In this document: positions 20,281-30,224 of the stretch, one piece after another
Position numbering within the stretch: the first letter of the stretch is position 1
Layout: every line of letters starts with the position of its first letter
Source of the DNA: Hexactinellida sp. DTS-2022
Taxonomy: Eukaryota > Porifera > Hexactinellida
Length of the DNA stretch: 64,000 bases
Direction: 5' to 3'
Assembly (NCBI GenBank): GCA_028753945.1
Contig: JAPNXP010000008.1
Location: forward strand, 2,790,001-2,854,000
The notes under the pieces: model-generated
Told to the model about the DNA's origin: nothing
What the model saw: only the letters and a program-made list of their open reading frames with translations
The model's database searches: none
Program-made: the position numbers and the translations under genes

Positions 20281-21424
20281 TTACTTGTTGAAGCATATTA
20301 TACCTTTGTGGCATTTAGTGCCACAGGTTCTGGATGACTTCTTGCATGGACATCGTGTTGTCTTACAATTCTTACATCTGCAAAAAGAATTATTCTCAAT
20401 TCTTAATGAAGCCTTTCGCATTGCAGAAGTTTGAGAAATTATGGCTTCTGGGACATTCGAAGTCTGAATAAACGTATTAGAGGAGCAGACTTCGAACTGA
20501 TTTCTTGTGTAATTGGTATTTAGTGTACCATCTCTCGTGCCAATGGTGTAGATGTCTTCCGAAATATCTGTAACTACAGCTAGCATATTTCGTGGGCTAA
20601 GGGAATGCATTTTATCAGGCCTTTCAATAGGGACGACTACATTATCGCCGACAGCAGCTGGTTGAAACTTTTTAGCTGCAGATGAAACCATACGATCGTG
20701 TAGTTTCTCCTGTTTTCTCTTGATCCCAGCTCTCACATTATTTGAATGTTTGGTTGCATTTTCAAGGTCACATTTGGCACACCAAACAGGGGATCCGAAA
20801 CCTTCTTCCCCTTCGGTCCTACCACAATAGACATGGACGAATCTATTACAACCTGGACAAGAATGGACACCGCTTGTTTCGTAATTACAAACTACGCAGT
20901 TCAATGTGCCAGGAGAGGAATTAGTTACGAAGATACGAGTTCCATCAGGAATGGGTTGTGAAATATCATGTATATATGAATCTAGCACTGGTGACTGAAT
21001 AGAATCAACCTCGACTTCGCTGTTATTTGTTGAAAACTTAGAACCTGTAATGGGTGATATATCACTATGAGTCCGGATTGCACTGGGAAGTAGGTTGTTT
21101 ATAGGAGCATTAATTTCTTCAATGAGAGTTCTAAGTCTTCTTCTGTACGAATGTCAGAAGCACATTCTTCAGGAAGTCCGATATCAGAAAGGCCAAAGGA
21201 TGGTTTATGGTGATATAGAGCCTCGTATGGCGTCATTCCAATAGTAGAATGAATGTTGTATTTATTTCGAACTGTACACGCTTCAAGTATTTGACCCAGC
21301 ACAAATCATTAGGACTATTCCTCATTTTTGACCCTAGAGCATTTTTAATCTCTCTATTCGCACGCTCTACGGATCCTTGGCTTTCTGGATGGCGAGGCTT
21401 CCCGTGGATGATCTTTGTAGAAGG
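20281..21424 (-). pseudogene. Ginger/KRBA2-like integrase-type transposase, C-terminal part
   Basis: Continues the gene whose first half is at 29274-30007. Going down the minus strand: the end of the integrase core with GKPRHPESQGSVERANREIK, whose glutamate is the third catalytic residue; a frameshift near 21250; IGMTPYEALYHHKP; another frameshift near 21130; then a C-terminal tail. The tail (20988-20281) has a PHD/RING-like zinc cluster (CVVC, HSCPGCNRFVHVYC, WCAKC), a YTIGTRDGTLNTNYTRNQF motif and a Cys-rich end (CRCKNC, RCPCKK, CGTKCHKG). This layout matches Ginger-type transposons and the host genes derived from them. Frameshifts and the 7.8-kb insertion make it a pseudogene. Confidence 0.85.
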
Positions 21425-21433
21425 CCATTTTTC
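21425..21433. repeat. Target-site duplication, left copy (CCATTTTTC)
   Basis: CCATTTTTC here and at 29265-29273 flank the KDZ element. Read on the minus strand it encodes the Glu-Lys-Trp of the interrupted integrase. The exact boundary is uncertain by one or two bases. Confidence 0.75.
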
Positions 21434-21450
21434 CATGTATTAGAAAGTAC

Positions 21451-21565
21451 TGGGCGCATGCGCCTATCTATCTGGGCGCATGCGCCTATCTATCTGGGCG
21501 CATGCGCCTACCTACCTGGGCGCATGCGCCTAACTATCTGGCGTATGCTCCTATCTATCTATTTG
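21451..21565. repeat. Left subterminal array of 22-bp GC-rich unit
   Basis: Four tandem TGGGCGCATGCGCCTATC-type units and a decayed fifth (TGGCGTATGCTCCTATC). Each contains the palindrome GGCGCATGCGCC. The right end has two units. It is a likely transposase-binding region. Confidence 0.8.
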
Positions 21566-21641
21566 GACTATCTGGCACTCAATTAATTAGTACACTTTTT
21601 TAAAAAAAAGCATATACTTCCATCCTTAATTAGCCTGTAAG

Positions 21642-24600
21642 ATGCCTTTAATGACAAAAGGCAATGCAAGGGAAATATTAACAAACACTCTCAGACGTTT
21701 TAACTCCGTAACTGGTCAGAGTTTTGGCTTAGTATTTACTTGGCAGGGTGAACTCTCTTTGATTGGAAGTGAAAAGTTCAAGAAGTTCATTACTTTACAT
21801 CAATCTGAAGTATGGAAATATGTGGCATGTCAAGTACATCATTCTCAAGAAGGTTGTAACCCGACACATGAAGAGAATCTACTCCAGCTAGTATTGAGCG
21901 GAGACTTCATGTATTGTAATGTCATGATTCTTAGAAAAATCGTCGCTTTGATCATGCAAAAATATGCTGGTATGTTACAAACAACGTATAGTACAGTAGA
22001 GCCTCTGAACAACGGACACCTTGGGACCGGAACCGTTGTCCGTTATTTAGAGGTTGTCCGCTATTTAGAGGTTGCTTTTCTATTAGACATATGCTAAATA
22101 AATAAATCCGTGCCACGAGGGTTGTCCGTTATTTAGAGGTTGTCCGTTATGGGAGGCTCCACTGTATATACAATTTAAGAAATTTTAGGGCTAGAGACGG
22201 ACATACCTAATTTCCGGAACGGGACGGTATGGAACGGTACCATTCCGGAAAATTAAAGTACCTAAATTACGGAACGGTACCATTCCGGGAAATCTAAGTA
22301 CCTAAATTACGGAACGGGGTAGCCCCCCAAGGTATAGGTTATTATAGACTTTAGAAACATTTGGTCTTGCATCCCGATATACTATTTGTACTAAATGTGC
22401 TAAATTATGAAGATAAATTGAAACAAACTGGCGTAAGCGCGTTTAGGGACCCAGGGGCCGAAATAGCTAACCTATTGTGTTCTTGTGGTGCCCTAAATCA
22501 CTAGCGATTTAGGGATCCCGAGTTTTGTATAGAGTGAGTATATTGTTATAGTCTAATCATTCTTAGTTGATGTATACCAGCTCAAGTAGCTAAATTAACA
22601 TTGTAAATAACGGATCCAGGGCTTCATTTAGGGGATGGCGTGGGATGGCTCTCGCCATCCCTTGCACCCCCTACCTTACAGCGTGCTTCCGCGCGCGGTC
22701 ACATCCTCGCCATCCCTTATTCCTGGAAACCATAATTTTTCCATCGCTTTGGTCAATGTCTAAAGAAACCCTGGTATCCCTAACTATACCACCTTGTCTA
22801 CAGTCTACACATCCAACACGTGTCACTTAACATACTTGGTGTTTAGGGACTTGCAACATTTTAAATGATTACTCTCATTGTTAAATGCACATTGTATCAC
22901 TGCCCTCCTTTCTGAGTGCGACACTTAGTTACTATGACTTCCTCCAATAATAATATAATAATTTTAAAGGGTCTCTGTGTGGGTCGTATGCGGGTACCGC
23001 CCCCGCCCCGCCCCACAAAATATTCAGATCCTTTGACCCGCAACCCGCATTTATTAACCCGCCCCGCGCAGAGGTCTAGTACATGTCACTGGTTTGATCC
23101 CTACATTTAGCGATTTCGGACTAAGCCGGCCCTGAAACGCTAGTGATTTAGGGCCGGGGGTAAAGGAACAAAAAAGGAATTTTAGACGGGAAAGGAAGGT
23201 TGGCAATTGGAATCACTATTTTGGTTTACTCGGGGTCTCGTTAGGGTATCCACGGGATTGCACATATCTTTCGATCGAGGTTTAACTGAAAGGAGATATC
23301 TTTGTTCTGGAAATTAGGGATCAAAATTAACGGAATCGAAAATTCCGGAAAATAGGCAATTAAATTTCCGGAATAATTTTGTTCCGGAAATTAGGCATTT
23401 ACAAATTCCGGAATCGAAAATTCCGGTAAATAGGCATTTGAATTTCCGGAATAATTACGTTCCGGAAATTAGGTATTCATATTTTCCGGAACCGTTCCGC
23501 GCAATTCCGTAATTTAGGTACTTTGATTTTCCGGAATGGTACCGTTCCATACCGTCCCGTTCCGGAAATTAGGTATGTCCCTAGAGACTCGCTTATTTAT
23601 TTTAATCTATAGCGAGTACATCAAACTAACTAATTAATATGCCTGGAAGGAATACGAGGACCCCAGTTTTACCGGGAAAATTTATCCTTAAAACAATTTA
23701 AGTAACGGATATTTATTTAATCACATCTATTCTAGGTAAGACACGTGATTATTGGGGCAAACCAAAATATCTACCTTTGTGGTGGCCAGCAGCAATTAAA
23801 TTTCGAGGATTAAAATCCAAATCTAAAACAGACTTATTAGCAATCATTCAATCCTACAAAGACTACACTCATCCAGAAAGTGACACGGTTAAATCCGCTC
23901 CGGACAGAGACAGGTCCCCTTTAACATCGCGAAGGTTAATAAAGGACTCTAAGTCGGAAGCCTCTCTTGACAATGTTTTCAAACCAGCAAATGTTCAAGG
24001 AAAACATACTAGTAACCTATTTTTCAATCAAACTTCCGATATAGACACCTCGAATGATTCCTTCTTTTCACCTGGCATACGGCAACTCGATTTTACTTCA
24101 TTCCTAGAACATTCAGCTACACTCGCAACACTATCAAATGCTAAACCAATTTTACCTATTTATCAATCTCTCAACATTATTGAGCCAATTGTTGAAGCGA
24201 ATACAGCTGCAGTTTCTGTTAGCATAGAATCTACACCCAAAATACTCACTGAACAGTTAAGGGAAAAGTGCATCAAAGAACTCTCCAAACCCAATTTTTT
24301 TCTTAGTGATACAACAATCAATGCGTTTTGTGTAAGTTGACTTTATAACCGTTGGCGTTGCTATGAATGATTACGGACTCACCCTTTAATAATTATTGTA
24401 TACACATATTTACCAATATCAAATTTTAGGACATTCTGAAAAATCAATATCCAAAAATATTGGGACTGCAAGATACGATCCTCTCACAGGTAATTGATCT
24501 AAATAACTCTATTCACCACTTATATTTACACGAGTCCTTCTGTCTCGGGGGCTTCGCGATGAGTCACACATCGCTATGTGATATCGCTTTAGTTTTATTG

Positions 24601-25485
24601 TATACAACAACAATAATGATTAATAGTATAAAGGAAAATTATCCGACTCGGCAGCCAAAATTCTGAGCATTTTATTGCGAATATTTTACCCGAGCACACT
24701 AATAGAATGCTCGGATAATTGAATGACCGAGTCGGATAAATATTCATAATATAAATTTGTAATTACGAAATTCGAAATCAGCATACTTGTTAACATTTGC
24801 AAGTTAGTCTATATCACAATTATGAATGCGGTTTCTATTCCCCTAATACTTTAATGCAATCCGGGGGGACACACATACTTACACATTATGTCACTTACAC
24901 ACACTTTGATAATTAATTTGTTCTTAGAATCGTGGCTTTGTTAAGGCTCACTCAGGGTCAGTTCAAATCCATTACAATGGCTCTTTACATTGGGTTTGTT
25001 CTCGAATGGACCAAAACCAGTCTGTATTTGTTTATGATTCCATGTACTGTAATCGTACGACAGAGGAATTTGATACTCAATTGGCCCTACTCTATAGTAG
25101 ACAGGAAGAAAATCTAAATATTACAGTTGTCCCAATTCAACAACAAAGAGGGCCTTCATATTGCGGACCTTTTGCACTTGCTGTGTGTACCGCACTTGCA
25201 GCTGGGGAAGATCCCACGACACTACGATGGCGCCAGGATAAAATGCGTTCGCACTTGATAAAGTGTTTCGAAACTGAAAATATTTCCCCCTTCCCTCTTA
25301 TTCAATCACAGAGATTACAAACAAAGATCTCGTTAAATCTGGAGCAAAAGTTGATAATTAAACTTTGGTGCTACTGTCGACTTCCAGCTTACTCATCTAA
25401 ATTCATGGTTGAGTGTCAACAATGTAAAACATGGTTTCACAAACCTTGCATTGGACTACCAGATACTGGTATACAAGTAAAATAA
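21642..25485 (+). CDS. Ulp1/C48-like SUMO protease with C-terminal PHD finger (KDZ element accessory gene)
   Basis: Four exons (21642-21969, 23736-24331, 24430-24489, 24928-25485) join in phase at GT-AG introns into 514 codons including stop. Residues 1-110 are unassigned; exon 2 opens with a Trp-rich YWGKPKYLPLWWP motif. Exon 4 is an Ulp1-type cysteine protease: His in GSLHWVC (about 349), Asp in VFVYDS (about 365), the Gln of IQQQRG and Cys in PSYCGPFAL (about 407). A PHD finger starts at about 475 (WCYCRLP, MVECQQCKTWFHKPC). The stop at 25483-25485 precedes, in the same frame, a CNSC and a second stop at 25513-25515, so a nonsense codon has probably removed the last zinc-ligand pair. Ulp1 proteases cut SUMO conjugates; KDZ elements are known to carry such partners. 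Intron 1 carries two insertions. The start codon is the first ATG of the open exon, and an upstream exon cannot be excluded. Confidence 0.85.
21994..22164. mobile_element. pogo-like MITE in intron 1
   Basis: 171 bp, CAGTAGAGCCTCTGAAC at the left and GGGAGGCTCCACTG at the right, TA on both sides. Contains repeated GTCCGTTATTTAGAGG. It lies 24 bp after the splice donor. Confidence 0.8.
22199..23580. mobile_element. hAT-like non-autonomous element in intron 1, TSD CTAGAGAC
   Basis: Begins GGACATACCTAATTTCCGGA and ends with its complement. TIRs run for roughly 100 bp. Flanked by CTAGAGAC at 22191-22198 and 23581-23588, fitting the hAT pattern nTnnnnAn. The interior is non-coding, with TTCCGGAAATTAGG repeats and a patchwork of other fragments (a GCGGGT-rich piece at 22980-23070). 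Confidence 0.85.
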
Positions 25486-25556
25486 TTCAATTGTAATTCA
25501 TGTGCTAGTAATTAGTTTTAATAATAGACATTTTAGTAGATACATACAAGTGAATA

Positions 25557-28500
25557 CTAACTATTTTGGTTAATATCTACCCTATCATTCCAACAAGCGA
25601 TGAAATATCTTGTATTATAAAACACATTCTGAATATTCATGTAAGTAATCTGAGTAGAAATCTTCCTCAAAGATGAAAAAAATTGTTCGCAAATTTGTGA
25701 GTTTAGGTTAGTTATTTCTTCTGTCTTTATTGAATTCATCTTATAAGAAGCATTGCATTTGTGGTTTTTCGTGTGAAATCGATCGATCAGAAATGTCGTA
25801 TTTCGAAACAATTTTGGGTCCCTGAAAAGAATTCGATAAACATATTAAATGTAAAAAAAGTGTGCATAAATTATAAGCTAAGTACCTGATAGTGCATGTG
25901 GTATGTAAGTTGCAAGCATTATCATAAATAATAATACTTGGTTGTCTCCTGAAAAGTGTCGAAAGGGTGTTGAAAATCGAAATGGTTGATTCCCTCTGTC
26001 TCATAATTTGAAACCCGTAACAAATTTTGTGCTTGCAGGCAATTACCAAAAGTCCAGGAGAAAACCTCTGATGTATAGGATAAATTTTTGTACATGCTAA
26101 ACTTGATGGAACTGTTAGATCAGCCTCATAAAAAGGTAATCTAATTGGGATAGAAATAAGCATATTGCAAATAGATTAAACAAGTTCAGCAATTATACTA
26201 TAATAGAATGATGCTACTTACTTGTAGTTTTTATTGAAAGTTGGGAAGTAATTGAAATAATCAGAGTGAGGAGCGTCGATTTCTACAAGTTTGCGACTCG
26301 GTTTGTGGAAAAGGTTATCTATTTTCAAAATTATACTTTTTAATAATCTGGCTGTAGTAGGATGTAAGATAAAATTCTCGTCTACTGGTAGTAAAGTGAC
26401 AAGTACTAGTGATGTAAAGAATTGTTTCAAAATATGCATTTTGGCATAAATTGCAAACAAACGTTTCCTGAGAATAGCTTTACCTTCAGATAATTGAACA
26501 ACCAAGTTTATTTCATCTTTAGTCAACAAGGAAAATTGGAAAAGTCCTGTAATGGGTTCTTGATGACAGAGGTGTTCTATTACCCCTCTAACTAAAGGAT
26601 AGTCTGGATGAATTAGAATTATTCCGTCATTGTTAAAACTGCTAAAGATAATATAGTCTGTTAATTCTTCAAATTCTATCGATGTGACAATGTTATGGAA
26701 AAGTTGTTCGCTCAATCCAGTTGAGCAATAATCAATTAGTTGATTCCTCGAATCTGTATTTCTTATGAATACACGCTCAATCAATGGAATCGGTTGGTAG
26801 ATTTGAGCTGCATCATATTCATATTGGACTGGACATTGTGGAATTTTTCTCACTGTTCCCATCATTATTCCATCCATAATTATAACATCTGGACTGTCTT
26901 GGCATTTGGGACAAGTGAATGTTTTAAAGTAATCAATATCAATCATTCTTAAATAAGCATTCCAGCCATGCTGTACAATATGATAGAAGAATCTGATTTG
27001 CCTACCCATTCTAAAAAATTTCCTGTTTTTAGCCCTAAATTAGGAATAGAAAATTAATACCTATCGATTAGTATCGAACAAATGCCCACTATTTGTAACT
27101 TATAGGTAATAAAACATACAGTACCATTAGTTATTACCTCAAAAAGCTGTGAAGTGGATTTCGGGATAAAGTCATCAGTTCACTATATTCATAGAGTAAT
27201 CCGAAATGAATGAAATAGTGATTATTTAGGTTTAGTAAAAGAAACCGTTGCCCTTCAAAAACACTTTGGCAATGACAAGGTCCTGTACATCGAGAACTGT
27301 AAACTAAGTGAATAAAATAGATAAATCAAATCTTGAACAAATATACACAAGGAATTATCCAGGAGCGCGAGACGCTCCTTTTGGAGCTGATTTTTGGTAA
27401 ATTTGTATTTAGGAGCGTGAAAATTAGGAATCCTCTCCTATACCGTAACATTAATTTGTGATTTAGACGTATGAGAAGTGGATCAGACCAAGCATTAGGA
27501 GCGCATTTACAAATGGCTGTATAATACACTGAATATTATACACCTTCGTCGATTGGTAGCAAATATTCATTTCCCTTGAATAAAATTAATTAATTAACTC
27601 AGTTTACCTTTATGTCCTTTAAGGTCAAGAATGTCATTATCCATATAGACTATGATCCCTGTACGTTGTAATGTTGAGTCTTTGAATGCATAGCCATTAT
27701 TACAATCCTTGGCTTCCGGATATAAATCAACTGGTAGAGTGAATCCATTGGAAAGTTGTTCAGAGTACACTGAAGCCAGATTTTCATCCAATATATTTGG
27801 AATGGGTAGAGAAGAAATTGTCGAATATTTTTCAGTTGTTGTAATATCTATTGGATTGGTTTCTGCTTCCAAATCCGGAAGAATCTTTTTTAATGTAGAT
27901 ACTTGTTTGCATTTATTATTGCAACTCTCACATGTCCATTTATTTTCGGTGCAAACGAAACAATGAAAAGTAGAATTATCCGTTAAGAAAATAGTTTTAT
28001 GATCTATGGAGTAGAAAGTTAGATTGTCCTTCTGGTCTGATAGGGTATTTTCTCGAATTATTTCTGAACAATATTCAAAAGCTTGGTAGTGATAGCAATC
28101 ATTGGTAAGGCATTTCAAGCATACATTCTCCAGTCTATCGATTATAATTTTCTTCTTCTTAATTTGTAGTTTACCTATTTAATTATTCCATTATATTTAA
28201 ACATTATAAATAAACTTCATGATGGAAGTGATTCTGTTATCTTACCTGCTATTACATGATAATCTGTAATTATACCAAAATTGGATCGATCGAGCTTCCA
28301 TACTTGAGTTGTTTCCATTATAAGGTGAATATATTGATCAATTAACAGAATTTCAATTGAAACAGTATTATAATAATGGCTGGTATCTTCTTCAGAATCT
28401 TCTTCAGAATTGATTTCACTTTTTCTTGGGCCTATAAGATGTCAGGCGATTATATTTTTAAGTGAATTAATTAATTGAAAAATATATTACTTACAATACT

Positions 28501-28660
28501 CAATTTTAAGATCTTGAGGATTAAAATTCGAACTAAATTCTTCAATTTGAGGCTGGGATCCTGTAATTCGTAGTGTAGATATAGTAGCCAGGGTAGCCTC
28601 TTCTCTTTCGAGCTTACGTTTTTTCTGTTTGCAAGTCACTTTTAGAGTAGAAATATCCAT
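25557..28660 (-). CDS. KDZ-family transposase (HMGXB3-related), seven exons, intact frame
   Basis: Exons 28660-28495, 28431-28246, 28174-27608, 27303-27138, 27034-26222, 26140-25886 and 25821-25557 total 2418 nt (806 codons with stop). All six introns are GT-AG and every phase matches. The N-terminus is basic (residues 1-30). A Cys cluster lies near 187-205 (HCFVC, WTCESC), and RCTGPCHC follows near 311. VYSSRCTG and LLYEYSELMTLSRNPLHSF precede FFYHIVQHGWNAYL. Likely catalytic acids are Asp of IIMDGIMMG (about 416), Asp of IIYDNACNLH (about 706) and Glu of LNSQICEQ (about 763), with IDRFHTKNHKCN between. These motifs define the KDZ transposase domain, also present in vertebrate HMGXB3. By family it is a nuclear DDE transposase that moves this element. 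No frameshift or premature stop was seen. A domesticated host gene is the alternative, but the flanking TIRs and TSD argue for a transposon. Confidence 0.88.
27345..27530. repeat. GGAGCG repeat in transposase intron 3
   Basis: GGAATTATCCAGGAGCGCGA to TATAATACACTG, closely matching 7495-7675. It lies entirely in the intron 27304-27607. Confidence 0.7.
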
Positions 28661-28682
28661 TCTAGTGTAAAACTAATAATTT

Positions 28683-29044
28683 CAGAGTTGAAAATAATCA
28701 TGATTTTTTTTTAAAATAAACAAAAATCCGATTTTTTTGATTTAAATCAGAGTTTTGATTTTAATTGTTTTTTTGCAATCTATATCACACTGGCGTATAT
28801 TATTTGGCTAATAGATTAATTACATTGATAATGACTCATTATCAATGTATTTCTTTACTTTTCGCAAAAAACAATAGAAATCAAAAATCTGATTTAAATC
28901 AAAAAGTCTGATTTAAATCAAAAAAATCGCATTTTTTGATTCAAATCAGACTTTTTTGATTTAAATCAGATTTTTGATTTAAATCATGATTTTATTAATA
29001 AAAATCATTGATTTAAATCACTTGATTTAAATCAAACAACCCTG
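28683..29044. mobile_element. hAT-like MITE with GATTTAAATCA repeats
   Basis: Right end CAAACAACCCTG and left end CAGAGTTGAAAATAATC match the family at 45498-45817 and 55084-55437. The interior is a series of GATTTAAATCA palindromes. It lies just upstream of the KDZ transposase start. No clean duplication was found. Confidence 0.7.
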
Positions 29045-29212
29045 AAAACTATAAGCTCTAATAATTTACATTTCTTTGGGACTATATTGGATACTATACT
29101 TGAACCAAAGTCGCGTCGATACCTATATCTGACTAAGATGCTAGCAATAGTAAATAATGCCCAATTGTAGGCACATGTTGTGTACAATATTAATATCCTA
29201 TGCAGATAGTTA

Positions 29213-29250
29213 GGCGCATGCGCCCAGATAGATAGGCGCATGCGCCCAGT
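29213..29250. repeat. Right subterminal array of 22-bp GC-rich unit
   Basis: Two units in inverted orientation to 21451-21565, with the same GATAGTTAGGCGCATGCGCC innermost variant. Confidence 0.8.
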
Positions 29251-29273
29251 ACTTTCTAATACCTCCATTTTTC

Positions 29274-30007
29274 ATCAATTAATGAAAATAAAGTATAATT
29301 ACAGAATTCACCCCCATTATCTGACTGGAGAATATGAGGTGGGCCGATGTCGCAGAAGATTTCTTTAAGGATGTTTGCTACTTCTGCAGCAGACTTGTGT
29401 TTCAGAGGCCGAAGGAGAAGGTATTTGGTGAAATGGTCCTGGTAAACCAACAGCCACTTATAAGGGATACCAGAATCTGACATGTTGTGTTGCTCTGACA
29501 TATCTCGAAAATCAATCAAATCGACTTGGCACCTGGAGAGAAATCTTGTCGATGAAATTGGCTTGACGACTAAAGATTTTACCGATTTCTTGGCTTTTCG
29601 AAGGTGACATTCTTCACAACTGGCTAAGAATAAACACAAGCTTTCTCTGTTATGCCGTGATACTCCTGTACCAATCGTTTATGCAAACCATCTCTCCTAA
29701 CGAAGTTATGTTCCAAATGTACACGTTTTATAACATCATATAGCTCTTCAATCGAGAGTACGCGCTTATCTTGGCTATGCTCACCTTCACTCCTCCTCAG
29801 ATATAGAAGCCTGGCCCCTTGACATGGCACTATCTTGAATCGCAAATGCAGTCTCTGCATGCGAATTCTTCCCGCTCTATCTGAAGGCACGGGTCCCGAA
29901 ATTAATTCAATCTTTTGAGTTATTTCTTCCTTCGTATACAACTCGGAGCGATTTGTAGAGGGTAGATTCGATAGAGAGTATATAAAATTATGTTTTGCCA
30001 AGTCCAT
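29274..30007 (-). pseudogene. Ginger/KRBA2-like integrase-type transposase, N-terminal part
   Basis: 30007-29624 starts MDLAKHNFIYSLSNLP and contains the two histidines of an HHCC integrase zinc-binding domain (VHLEHNFVRRDGLHKRL). After a frame change near 29640 come its two cysteines (CEECHLRK). The integrase core follows, with the first catalytic Asp in CQVDLIDFRDM, WLLVYQDHFTKYLLLRPL and the second Asp in LQSDNGGEFCNY. The frame then runs into the KDZ element at 29264. The third catalytic residue and the rest of the protein are at 21424 and below. Such DDE integrases drive cut-and-paste movement in Ginger elements. No TIR of this host element was identified. Confidence 0.85.
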
Positions 30008-30224
30008 TCTTTGAGAGTAGAATGTCGAAAATATGAAGAATGCTTTACAACTTCAACATTTAAATATTTGAGGAGGATCAGAAGAATCTACCGTCATCTC
30101 AACAGACGTACATGGAAACGTTTCGCGAACTTTGAAAGATCAAAAACACCAACAGCTGACATGATGATGATGATTACGTATTTATCGTATTAGAAATGAA
30201 TATTAATGAATTAATTACTCAAAT

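What the first reader, a model, noticed from the sequence alone, without database searches (positions are those of the whole stretch)
21434..29264. Nearly intact two-gene KDZ transposon pairing a DDE transposase with an Ulp1-PHD protein
Seen: inverted ends, 9-bp flanking repeat, and two convergent spliced genes whose seven and four exons join in phase at GT-AG introns (806 and 514 codons). Known: KDZ transposases carry the D-N-A-C-N-L and I-D-R-F-H motifs, and some KDZ elements travel with Ulp1 proteases. Inferred: the partner protein may strip SUMO from, or read, chromatin at the donor or target site. The tail-to-tail arrangement with 71 bp between the stops, the PHD fusion and the 22-bp subterminal arrays appear unusual.
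Basis: partly seen in the sequence, partly recalled or inferred. Interest (0 to 1): 0.88.

Follow-up and report, generated by a model that had tools for sequence, protein, structure and literature searches.

The report
Transposon carrying an NRF1-like DNA-binding protein
This is a real two-gene jumping gene, probably from a glass sponge, whose second protein has the DNA-gripping part of the animal transcription factor NRF1 joined to a SUMO-protease-like domain and a chromatin-reading finger, and whose two ends carry rows of the exact DNA sequence that NRF1 binds, so it probably recognises its own copies and helps them stay active.

Summary
In detail: a 7,831-bp KDZ transposon (21434-29264) with a 9-bp target duplication sits in an integrase ORF; the unoccupied site exists at seven other places at 96-99% identity. 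Both genes join in phase; Pfam KDZ E 3.9e-11. Tandem pairs of GCGCANGCGC occur 152 times against 0 for the reversed pattern. For 22 related families an array of period 20-23 was found, with a usually palindromic core that differs between families and partly follows the DNA-contact residues. Best reading: a self-directed factor that binds its own element's ends, brings a SUMO-type protease and probably counters silencing or helps transposition, like plant VANC/VANDAL. Binding and function are untested. This copy's PHD finger is cut by an in-frame stop.

The parts
21434..29264 (.). KDZ transposon, 7,831 bp
   Evidence: ends and TSD; unoccupied site at 7 other places; same kind of ends in family B
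21425..21433 (.). target-site duplication CCATTTTTC, left copy
29265..29273 (.). target-site duplication, right copy
21434..21452 (+). left terminus CATGTATTAGAAAGTACTG
   Evidence: family B begins CATATATTTAAAAGTACC
29247..29264 (-). right terminus (reverse complement AGGTATTAGAAAGTACTG)
21450..21560 (.). left subterminal array, period 22; GGCGCATGCGCC at 21453, 21475, 21497, 21519, then a degenerate unit
29213..29246 (.). right subterminal array; GGCGCATGCGCC at 29213 and 29235
21642..21969 (+). gene 1 exon 1: NRF1-type dimerisation domain and first DNA-binding helix
   Evidence: hhalign to host NRF1
23736..24331 (+). gene 1 exon 2: rest of NRF1-type DNA-binding domain (WGK..P.WWP) and linker
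24430..24489 (+). gene 1 exon 3
24928..25485 (+). gene 1 exon 4: Ulp1-like protease (H-W, D, Q, C residues visible) and PHD finger
25483..25485 (+). premature in-frame TAA inside the PHD finger
28495..28660 (-). gene 2 exon 1
28246..28431 (-). gene 2 exon 2
27608..28174 (-). gene 2 exon 3
27138..27303 (-). gene 2 exon 4 (CxC4-like cysteine cluster)
26222..27034 (-). gene 2 exon 5
25886..26140 (-). gene 2 exon 6 (YDNACNL)
25557..25821 (-). gene 2 exon 7 (LIDRFH), stop

Best explanation
The element is a KDZ DNA transposon that encodes its transposase plus a self-directed chromatin factor. The factor has an NRF1-type dimerisation and DNA-binding module, an Ulp1-like (SUMO/ubiquitin-like) cysteine protease and a PHD finger closest to H3K4-methyl readers. 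As a homodimer it most likely binds the palindromic GCGCATGCGC units arrayed every 22 bp (about two helical turns) just inside both ends, which lie upstream of the two convergent genes and next to the cleavage sites. There it would cut SUMO from repressors or from the transposition complex, keeping its own copies open and active and/or marking the ends for the transposase. Families diversify by changing array core and DNA-contact residues, so each factor would serve its own family. SHOWN: element, gene structures, domain homology, arrays, site identity, genome-wide linkage, divergence of cores between families. INFERRED: binding, deSUMOylation, anti-silencing or end-recognition role (about 0.85 that the protein binds the arrays; about 0.55 anti-silencing/transcription, 0.35 transposition-complex assembly as the main role).
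For: NRF1 homology: PF10491 E 3.1e-4 in the window protein (21.0 bits, cut-off 23.5), over cut-off in three relatives at 1.5e-5, 2e-8, 2.7e-9 (the last a composite of two near-identical copies); 18 genomic places besides the true NRF1 gene marked over cut-off, 3 of them only with their frame neighbours; hhalign of 23 families to the host NRF1 93.9%, E 1.6e-7 over 124 collinear columns through both domains. Human NRF1 dimer on GCGCATGCGC through R206, N242, R244 (PMC10810270, passages). R206-equivalent kept in 21 of 21 families with that region; N242-equivalent Asn in 12 of 22. Sites: GCGCATGCGC 379 vs 26 reversed; tandem GCGCANGCGC pairs 152 vs 0. On C1, as far as the capped list goes and with neighbouring arrays merged, 7 of 13 array clusters lie within 5 kb of an NRF1/Ulp1 gene; 0.16 expected, 0 of 100,000 randomisations. 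Diverged cores: CCGCATGCGG pairs 90 vs 0, the listed ones bracketing four family-J elements on C1 (two), C10 and C12, with C4:1619007 and C12:125292 one-sided; TCGCATGCGA pairs 17 vs 0. 18 of 24 array units hold a palindrome of 10 bp or more, 2.5% in shuffles. The glass sponge Oopsacas minuta has the same protein: P0003, 61% identical to family B over residues 1-170.
Against: No binding data. In the window's own family the N242 equivalent is Gly and R244 is Lys. Across families base 3 of the half-site tracks residue 244 (rank 2 of 146 columns) and base 5 tracks residue 242 only moderately (rank 12); base 4 tracks neither (ranks 21 and 76). Families are related by descent, so co-variation has few independent events. 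Six families with a recognisable DNA-binding exon gave no end array in the 2-4 kb read. Six of 13 C1 array clusters are not near a detected gene; one was read (a non-autonomous element). The host's true NRF1 could bind the same sites. Ulp1 scores are weak in Pfam (C48 E 0.046 for family B, none for the window protein). The sister copy on C1:14820600 shows only 7 shared flanking bases (GGGTAGG), not a clean 9-bp duplication. This copy's PHD is truncated.
Confidence: 0.72

Rival explanations
1. The arrays are bound mainly by the host's own NRF1, which the element exploits as a promoter activator; the element's NRF1-like protein is a competitor, repressor or autoregulator.
For: Host has one canonical NRF1 gene with N-I-K at the contact positions; mouse NRF1 activates unmethylated IAP retrotransposons (PMC12420836, passages); the last full unit of the left array lies 113 bp upstream of the gene-1 start.
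Against: Many families have cores that differ from the NRF1 site (TGCGA, TGCGG, TGCTC, TGCAC, TGTGC half-sites), and changes within GCGC weaken human NRF1 binding (PMC10810270, passages); those families keep their own NRF1-like gene. Non-autonomous L096 keeps arrays at both ends, fitting a role in mobility.
Confidence: 0.15
2. The arrays are binding sites of the KDZ transposase itself (through its CxC4-like cysteine cluster); the NRF1-like module serves elsewhere and the match of core to NRF1 site is coincidence.
For: Subterminal repeats bound by transposases are common (recalled); CxC clusters of KDZ elements were hypothesised to recognise DNA or chromatin proteins (PMC12062965, passages).
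Against: The core in seven families equals the NRF1 site over 10 bp; residue 244 of the NRF1-like domain ranks second of 146 gene-1 columns for base 3 (gene-2 columns were not scanned, so this rival was not tested head to head).
Confidence: 0.1
3. The N-terminal domain is only a distant or spurious NRF1 look-alike.
For: Window protein scores just under the Pfam cut-off; NRF1 chains in the PDB match at E 0.015-0.052; no usable structure model.
Against: Relatives over cut-off; profile alignment E 1.6e-7 through both domains; P0002 carries PF10491 in the database.
Confidence: 0.03

Closest known systems
KDZ (Kyakuja-Dileera-Zisupton) DNA transposons
   Same: Pfam KDZ transposase with a CxC4-like cluster; inverted ends; short target duplication
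   Different: 9-bp target duplication here (Zisupton 8 bp, PMC12730594 passages); second gene with NRF1-type module, Ulp1 and PHD; NRF1-site arrays. The founding KDZ papers (Bohne 2012, Iyer 2014) were not read, so earlier KDZ-Ulp1 pairings were not checked
VANDAL / VANC anti-silencing system of Arabidopsis
   Same: TE-encoded sequence-specific protein; its motifs form tandem repeats in the element; motif and protein diverge together between related families (PMC5735166 passages; PMC10398659 abstract)
   Different: KDZ not Mutator-like (recalled), animal host, palindromic dimer sites at both ends, protease and PHD fused; no sequence comparison with VANC was made; anti-silencing not tested here
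NRF1 / P3A2 / EWG transcription factors
   Same: dimerisation domain plus WWP DNA-binding domain; identical site GCGCATGCGC in the window's family
   Different: fused to Ulp1 and PHD, mobile, multicopy, contact residues and sites diversified
Host NRF1-driven retrotransposons (mouse IAP)
   Same: NRF1 acts on a transposable element's regulatory region (PMC12420836 passages)
   Different: there the factor is the host's; here the element encodes it

Membership tests
KDZ transposon | KDZ-type transposase domain | tested here: met
   PF18758 E 3.9e-11, 43.5 bits over cut-off 26.6
KDZ transposon | CxC cysteine cluster beside the catalytic domain | tested here: inconclusive
   CxC4 E 3.8e-5, 24.0 bits, cut-off 26.9
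KDZ transposon | mobile unit with inverted ends and target duplication | tested here: met
Zisupton group within KDZ | 8-bp target duplication | tested here: not met
   9 bp in the window copy and in family B copy 1, 8 of 9 in B copy 2; not filed as Zisupton
NRF1 DNA-binding family | PF10491 domain | tested here: met
   window protein 21.0 bits, just under cut-off 23.5; relatives over it; hhalign E 1.6e-7
NRF1 DNA-binding family | base-contact residues R206, N242, R244 | tested here: inconclusive
   R206 kept 21 of 21; N242 Asn in 12 of 22; 244 is Lys in 6 of 22 and Arg in none of the 22 (host NRF1 has Lys)
NRF1 DNA-binding family | binds GCGCATGCGC as a dimer | not testable with these tools
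   sites present in arrays; binding not measured
Ulp1 (C48) protease | C48 profile and His-Asp-Gln-Cys residues | tested here: inconclusive
   PF02902 E 0.046 in family B, none in window; LHW, YDS, QQQ and CG residues visible in the window protein
PHD finger reading H3K4me | PHD profile with complete zinc ligands | tested here: not met
   PF00628 E 1.9e-5 over cut-off and PHF2 PHD E 2e-8, but the last Cys pair is cut off by a stop in this copy; complete in 17 other loci; histone binding untested
VANC-like anti-silencing factor | causes loss of silent marks at motif arrays | not testable with these tools
   only the sequence signature (arrays plus diverging protein) was seen

The most novel reading that the evidence does not exclude
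A transposon lineage captured, or was the source of, the NRF1 DNA-binding module, and uses it as a self-targeting anti-silencing factor fused to a SUMO protease; its families form a natural, readable code linking NRF1-type contact residues to palindromic sites, an animal counterpart of the plant VANC system that arose independently.
Probability: 0.5. Interest if true: 0.9.

Novelty: new variant of a known kind. Interest (0 to 1): 0.82.

Why it matters
I found no paper describing a mobile relative of NRF1 (searches, listings only). A transposon that encodes the NRF1 domain and carries the domain's own site at both ends gives a concrete mechanism for self-recognition, a natural series of about 22 protein-site pairs for reading NRF1-type specificity, a test of convergent anti-silencing between animals and plants, and a way to ask whether the NRF1 family came from, or was stolen by, transposons.

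Tried and rejected
Structure: AlphaFold2 of P0003 with a 3-sequence alignment gave pLDDT 31.8 and was discarded; no fold search was run. Protein database: the full-length window protein found only P0001, an Ulp1-PHD protein whose N-terminus looks AT-hook-like by eye (GRPKGSNK) and has no NRF1 hit; residues 1-170 of family B found two Oopsacas minuta proteins and nothing else up to E 10, so spread outside glass sponges is unknown. Covariation: a clean three-residue code was the hope; only base 3/residue 244 is strong, base 5/residue 242 moderate, base 4 unsupported, and the tree shows shared descent. Chance origin of the ends: rejected. Papers: 0 hold NRF1 + KDZ + transposon; unrelated for Zisupton/Ulp1/PHD finger/transposase; 10 listed for PF10491 or its name, none with a transposon title; 68 hold a KDZ name, 30 listed, of which passages of two were read. 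One regex found nothing because it was wrong and was replaced.

Searches use one representative per family. L068 (no end array) was in 57 and 58 but not in 77; family H (TCGAC-A-GTCGA by eye) was left out of 77, 80 and 97; L020 (first exon broken by a stop) entered only 77, 80 and 97; families L025/L021 and L012/L038 were each counted twice (24 units = 22 families). Rows were aligned on the core, which favours the core. Half-sites and ends were read by eye from the tool output.
Full report
WHAT IS THERE. The 7,831-bp element at 21434-29264 is a real insertion. It is flanked by CCATTTTTC on both sides, interrupts an integrase reading frame (Pfam rve E 2e-8 on the right-hand piece), and removing it with one repeat restores the frame. 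The joined site was found uninterrupted at seven other places of the genome over at least 250 of 260 bases at 96-99% identity, at one place at 85% and in more diverged copies. The window lies in an unnamed 112-Mb genome of 18 contigs. The only close outside relatives of gene 1 found are two hypothetical proteins of the glass sponge Oopsacas minuta (Hexactinellida), so the host is probably a glass sponge (inference).

GENES. Gene 2 is a KDZ transposase (PF18758, 43.5 bits, cut-off 26.6; CxC4 slightly under cut-off). Gene 1 ends in an Ulp1-like protease and a PHD finger whose matches in the PDB include PHF2 and PHF8 (E 2e-8 and 1e-6). Splicing is inferred from frame and GT-AG only; no RNA data.

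THE MISSED DOMAIN. About the first 150 residues of gene 1 are an NRF1-type module. The window protein hits Nrf1_DNA-bind (PF10491) at E 3.1e-4, 21.0 bits against a cut-off of 23.5; relatives pass it (1.5e-5, 2e-8, 2.7e-9). In the whole genome there is one true NRF1 gene (E 3e-50) and 75 further matches up to E 10, of which 18 are marked over the cut-off, three of them only with their frame neighbours; some are near-identical copies. A profile of 23 families aligned to the host's NRF1 gives 93.9% and E 1.6e-7 over 124 collinear columns, running through the dimerisation domain and the WWP DNA-binding domain.

THE ARRAYS ARE ITS SITES. The crystal structure of the human NRF1 dimer (PMC10810270; abstract and passages read) is on GCGCATGCGC, each monomer reading TGCGC. 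The core of the 22-bp repeats here is that 10-mer. In the window it occurs six times (up to one mismatch), each in the element's ends. Genome-wide it occurs 379 times against 26 for the reversed pattern; pairs of GCGCANGCGC 16-32 bp apart occur 152 times against 0. Of the six others, one was examined (near C1:3942018): a ~1.3-kb non-autonomous element with arrays at both ends and no recognisable gene (L096); the other five were not read.

A FAMILY OF FAMILIES. Family B, with a protein 50% identical over the protease and PHD, has the same convergent layout, the same kind of ends, a perfect 9-bp duplication in one copy and 8 of 9 in another, and 3 to 7 GCGCATGCGC units per end that vary between two copies 99.7% identical. 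The window's sister copy on C1 has a less clean duplication (7 shared bases). Of 53 KDZ places collated, 41 have an Ulp1 exon within 5 kb (0.36 expected), 40 of those 41 convergent. For 22 families an array was found by tandem-repeat search, period 20-23 (L019 has a second array of period 26); for family H two copies were seen by eye; for six families (L068, L065/L022, L014, L027, L069/L072, L077) no end array was found in the 2-4 kb read, where the end may not have been reached (L068 has a 22-bp repeat inside its intron instead). Array cores: GCGCATGCGC in seven families exactly, TCGCATGCGA in K and L028, CCGCATGCGG in J, GAGCATGCTC in L025/L021 and L012, GTGCATGCAC in L019, GCACATGTGC in D, ACACATGTGC in L080, GCGCTAGCGC in L064 and L015, mixed half-sites in L078, L054, L073, L074, and CAACATGTAA in C. 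In 18 of 24 units the palindrome is 10 bp or longer, against 2.5% of shuffled units. The ten core columns carry 1.38 bits on average, the spacer columns 0.31 (rows were aligned on the core, which favours it). Diverged cores behave alike: CCGCATGCGG pairs 90 vs 0, the listed ones bracketing four family-J elements on C1 (two), C10 and C12, while C4:1619007 and C12:125292 are one-sided in the capped list; TCGCATGCGA pairs 17 vs 0, at family K elements on C2, C4, C14 and C18 and at places on C11 and C12 that were not read.

CO-DIVERSIFICATION. In human NRF1, R206 reads the central T-G, R244 the middle and N242 the outer base of the half-site (PMC10810270). In the 22 families R206 is invariant (21 of 21 read), and 20 of 22 keep T-G at the centre. 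An aromatic residue at 244 (Y, Y, F) occurs only in D, L080 and C, the only families of the 22 with TGT; that column ranks second of 146, behind column 235. Cys at 242 occurs in K, L028, J, L064, L015; three of these five have A or G at base 5, but C (Ser 242) and L080 (Asn 242) also vary there, and the column ranks only 12th. Base 4 shows no link to 242 or 244 (ranks 21, 76). The tree of the dimerisation region groups the Cys-242 families, so events are few and this is support, not proof. Two families without a found array make predictions: L068 (Tyr at 244) should have TGT half-sites, L077 (N-V-R) TGCGC.

HOW IT PROBABLY WORKS. A homodimer of gene-1 protein on palindromes about two helical turns apart would bring Ulp1 and PHD to both ends, which also hold the upstream regions of both genes (113 bp from the last full left unit to the gene-1 start, 554 bp from the right array to the gene-2 start). 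Removing SUMO from silencing factors, or from the transposase complex, is the most economical role for the protease; PHD reading of H3K4 methylation would favour active copies. This is the logic described for VANC proteins in Arabidopsis: TE-encoded, motif-specific, motifs in tandem repeats that vary between related families (PMC5735166, passages; PMC10398659, abstract). Host NRF1 driving unmethylated mouse IAP elements (PMC12420836, passages) shows that NRF1 can power a transposable element and is the main rival.

NOVELTY. KDZ elements, TE-encoded self-specific factors and NRF1 action on TEs are each known. A transposon that encodes an NRF1-family DNA-binding protein matched to its own ends was not found in searches of the held library (listings and abstract starts); subscription papers, among them the founding KDZ papers, were not seen. 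The UniRef name shown for P0002 begins 'Nuclear respiratory factor 1 NLS/DNA-', so a database has flagged the domain there.

Noticed in passing
window 21990-22170 and 22187-23590: Intron 1 of gene 1 looks swollen by two nested insertions: a short element with ends CAGTAGAGCCTC...GAGGCTCCACTG and a ~1.4-kb inverted-repeat element (GACATACCTAATTTCCGGAAC...); read by eye.
   Followed up: no
window 20281-21424 and 29274-30052, minus strand: The target is a multicopy integrase element: rve domain, a Znf_SCAND3-type zinc finger and a Cys-rich tail; it looks Ginger-like (recalled), and its joined site recurs in the genome.
   Followed up: partly
window 28700-29035: Dense repeats of TGATTTAAATCA-type palindromes lie between the right array and the transposase gene; similar repeats are in L006 and L059.
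   Followed up: no
L048 1-323: A 31-bp tandem repeat (10.5 copies) lies next to a family C copy.
   Followed up: no
P0001: An Ulp1-PHD protein from another source (ENA contig of 251,747 bp) has an AT-hook-like N-terminus (by eye) instead of the NRF1 module, which would fit an exchangeable DNA-binding part.
   Followed up: partly
L055-L058, PHD region: Four near-identical family B copies share a frame break at the last PHD ligands while L052 and L053 are open there, so a PHD-truncated version may have spread.
   Followed up: no
G000:C1:3960236-3960335: An array with GCGCACGCGC cores (centre changed), not near a detected gene.
   Followed up: no
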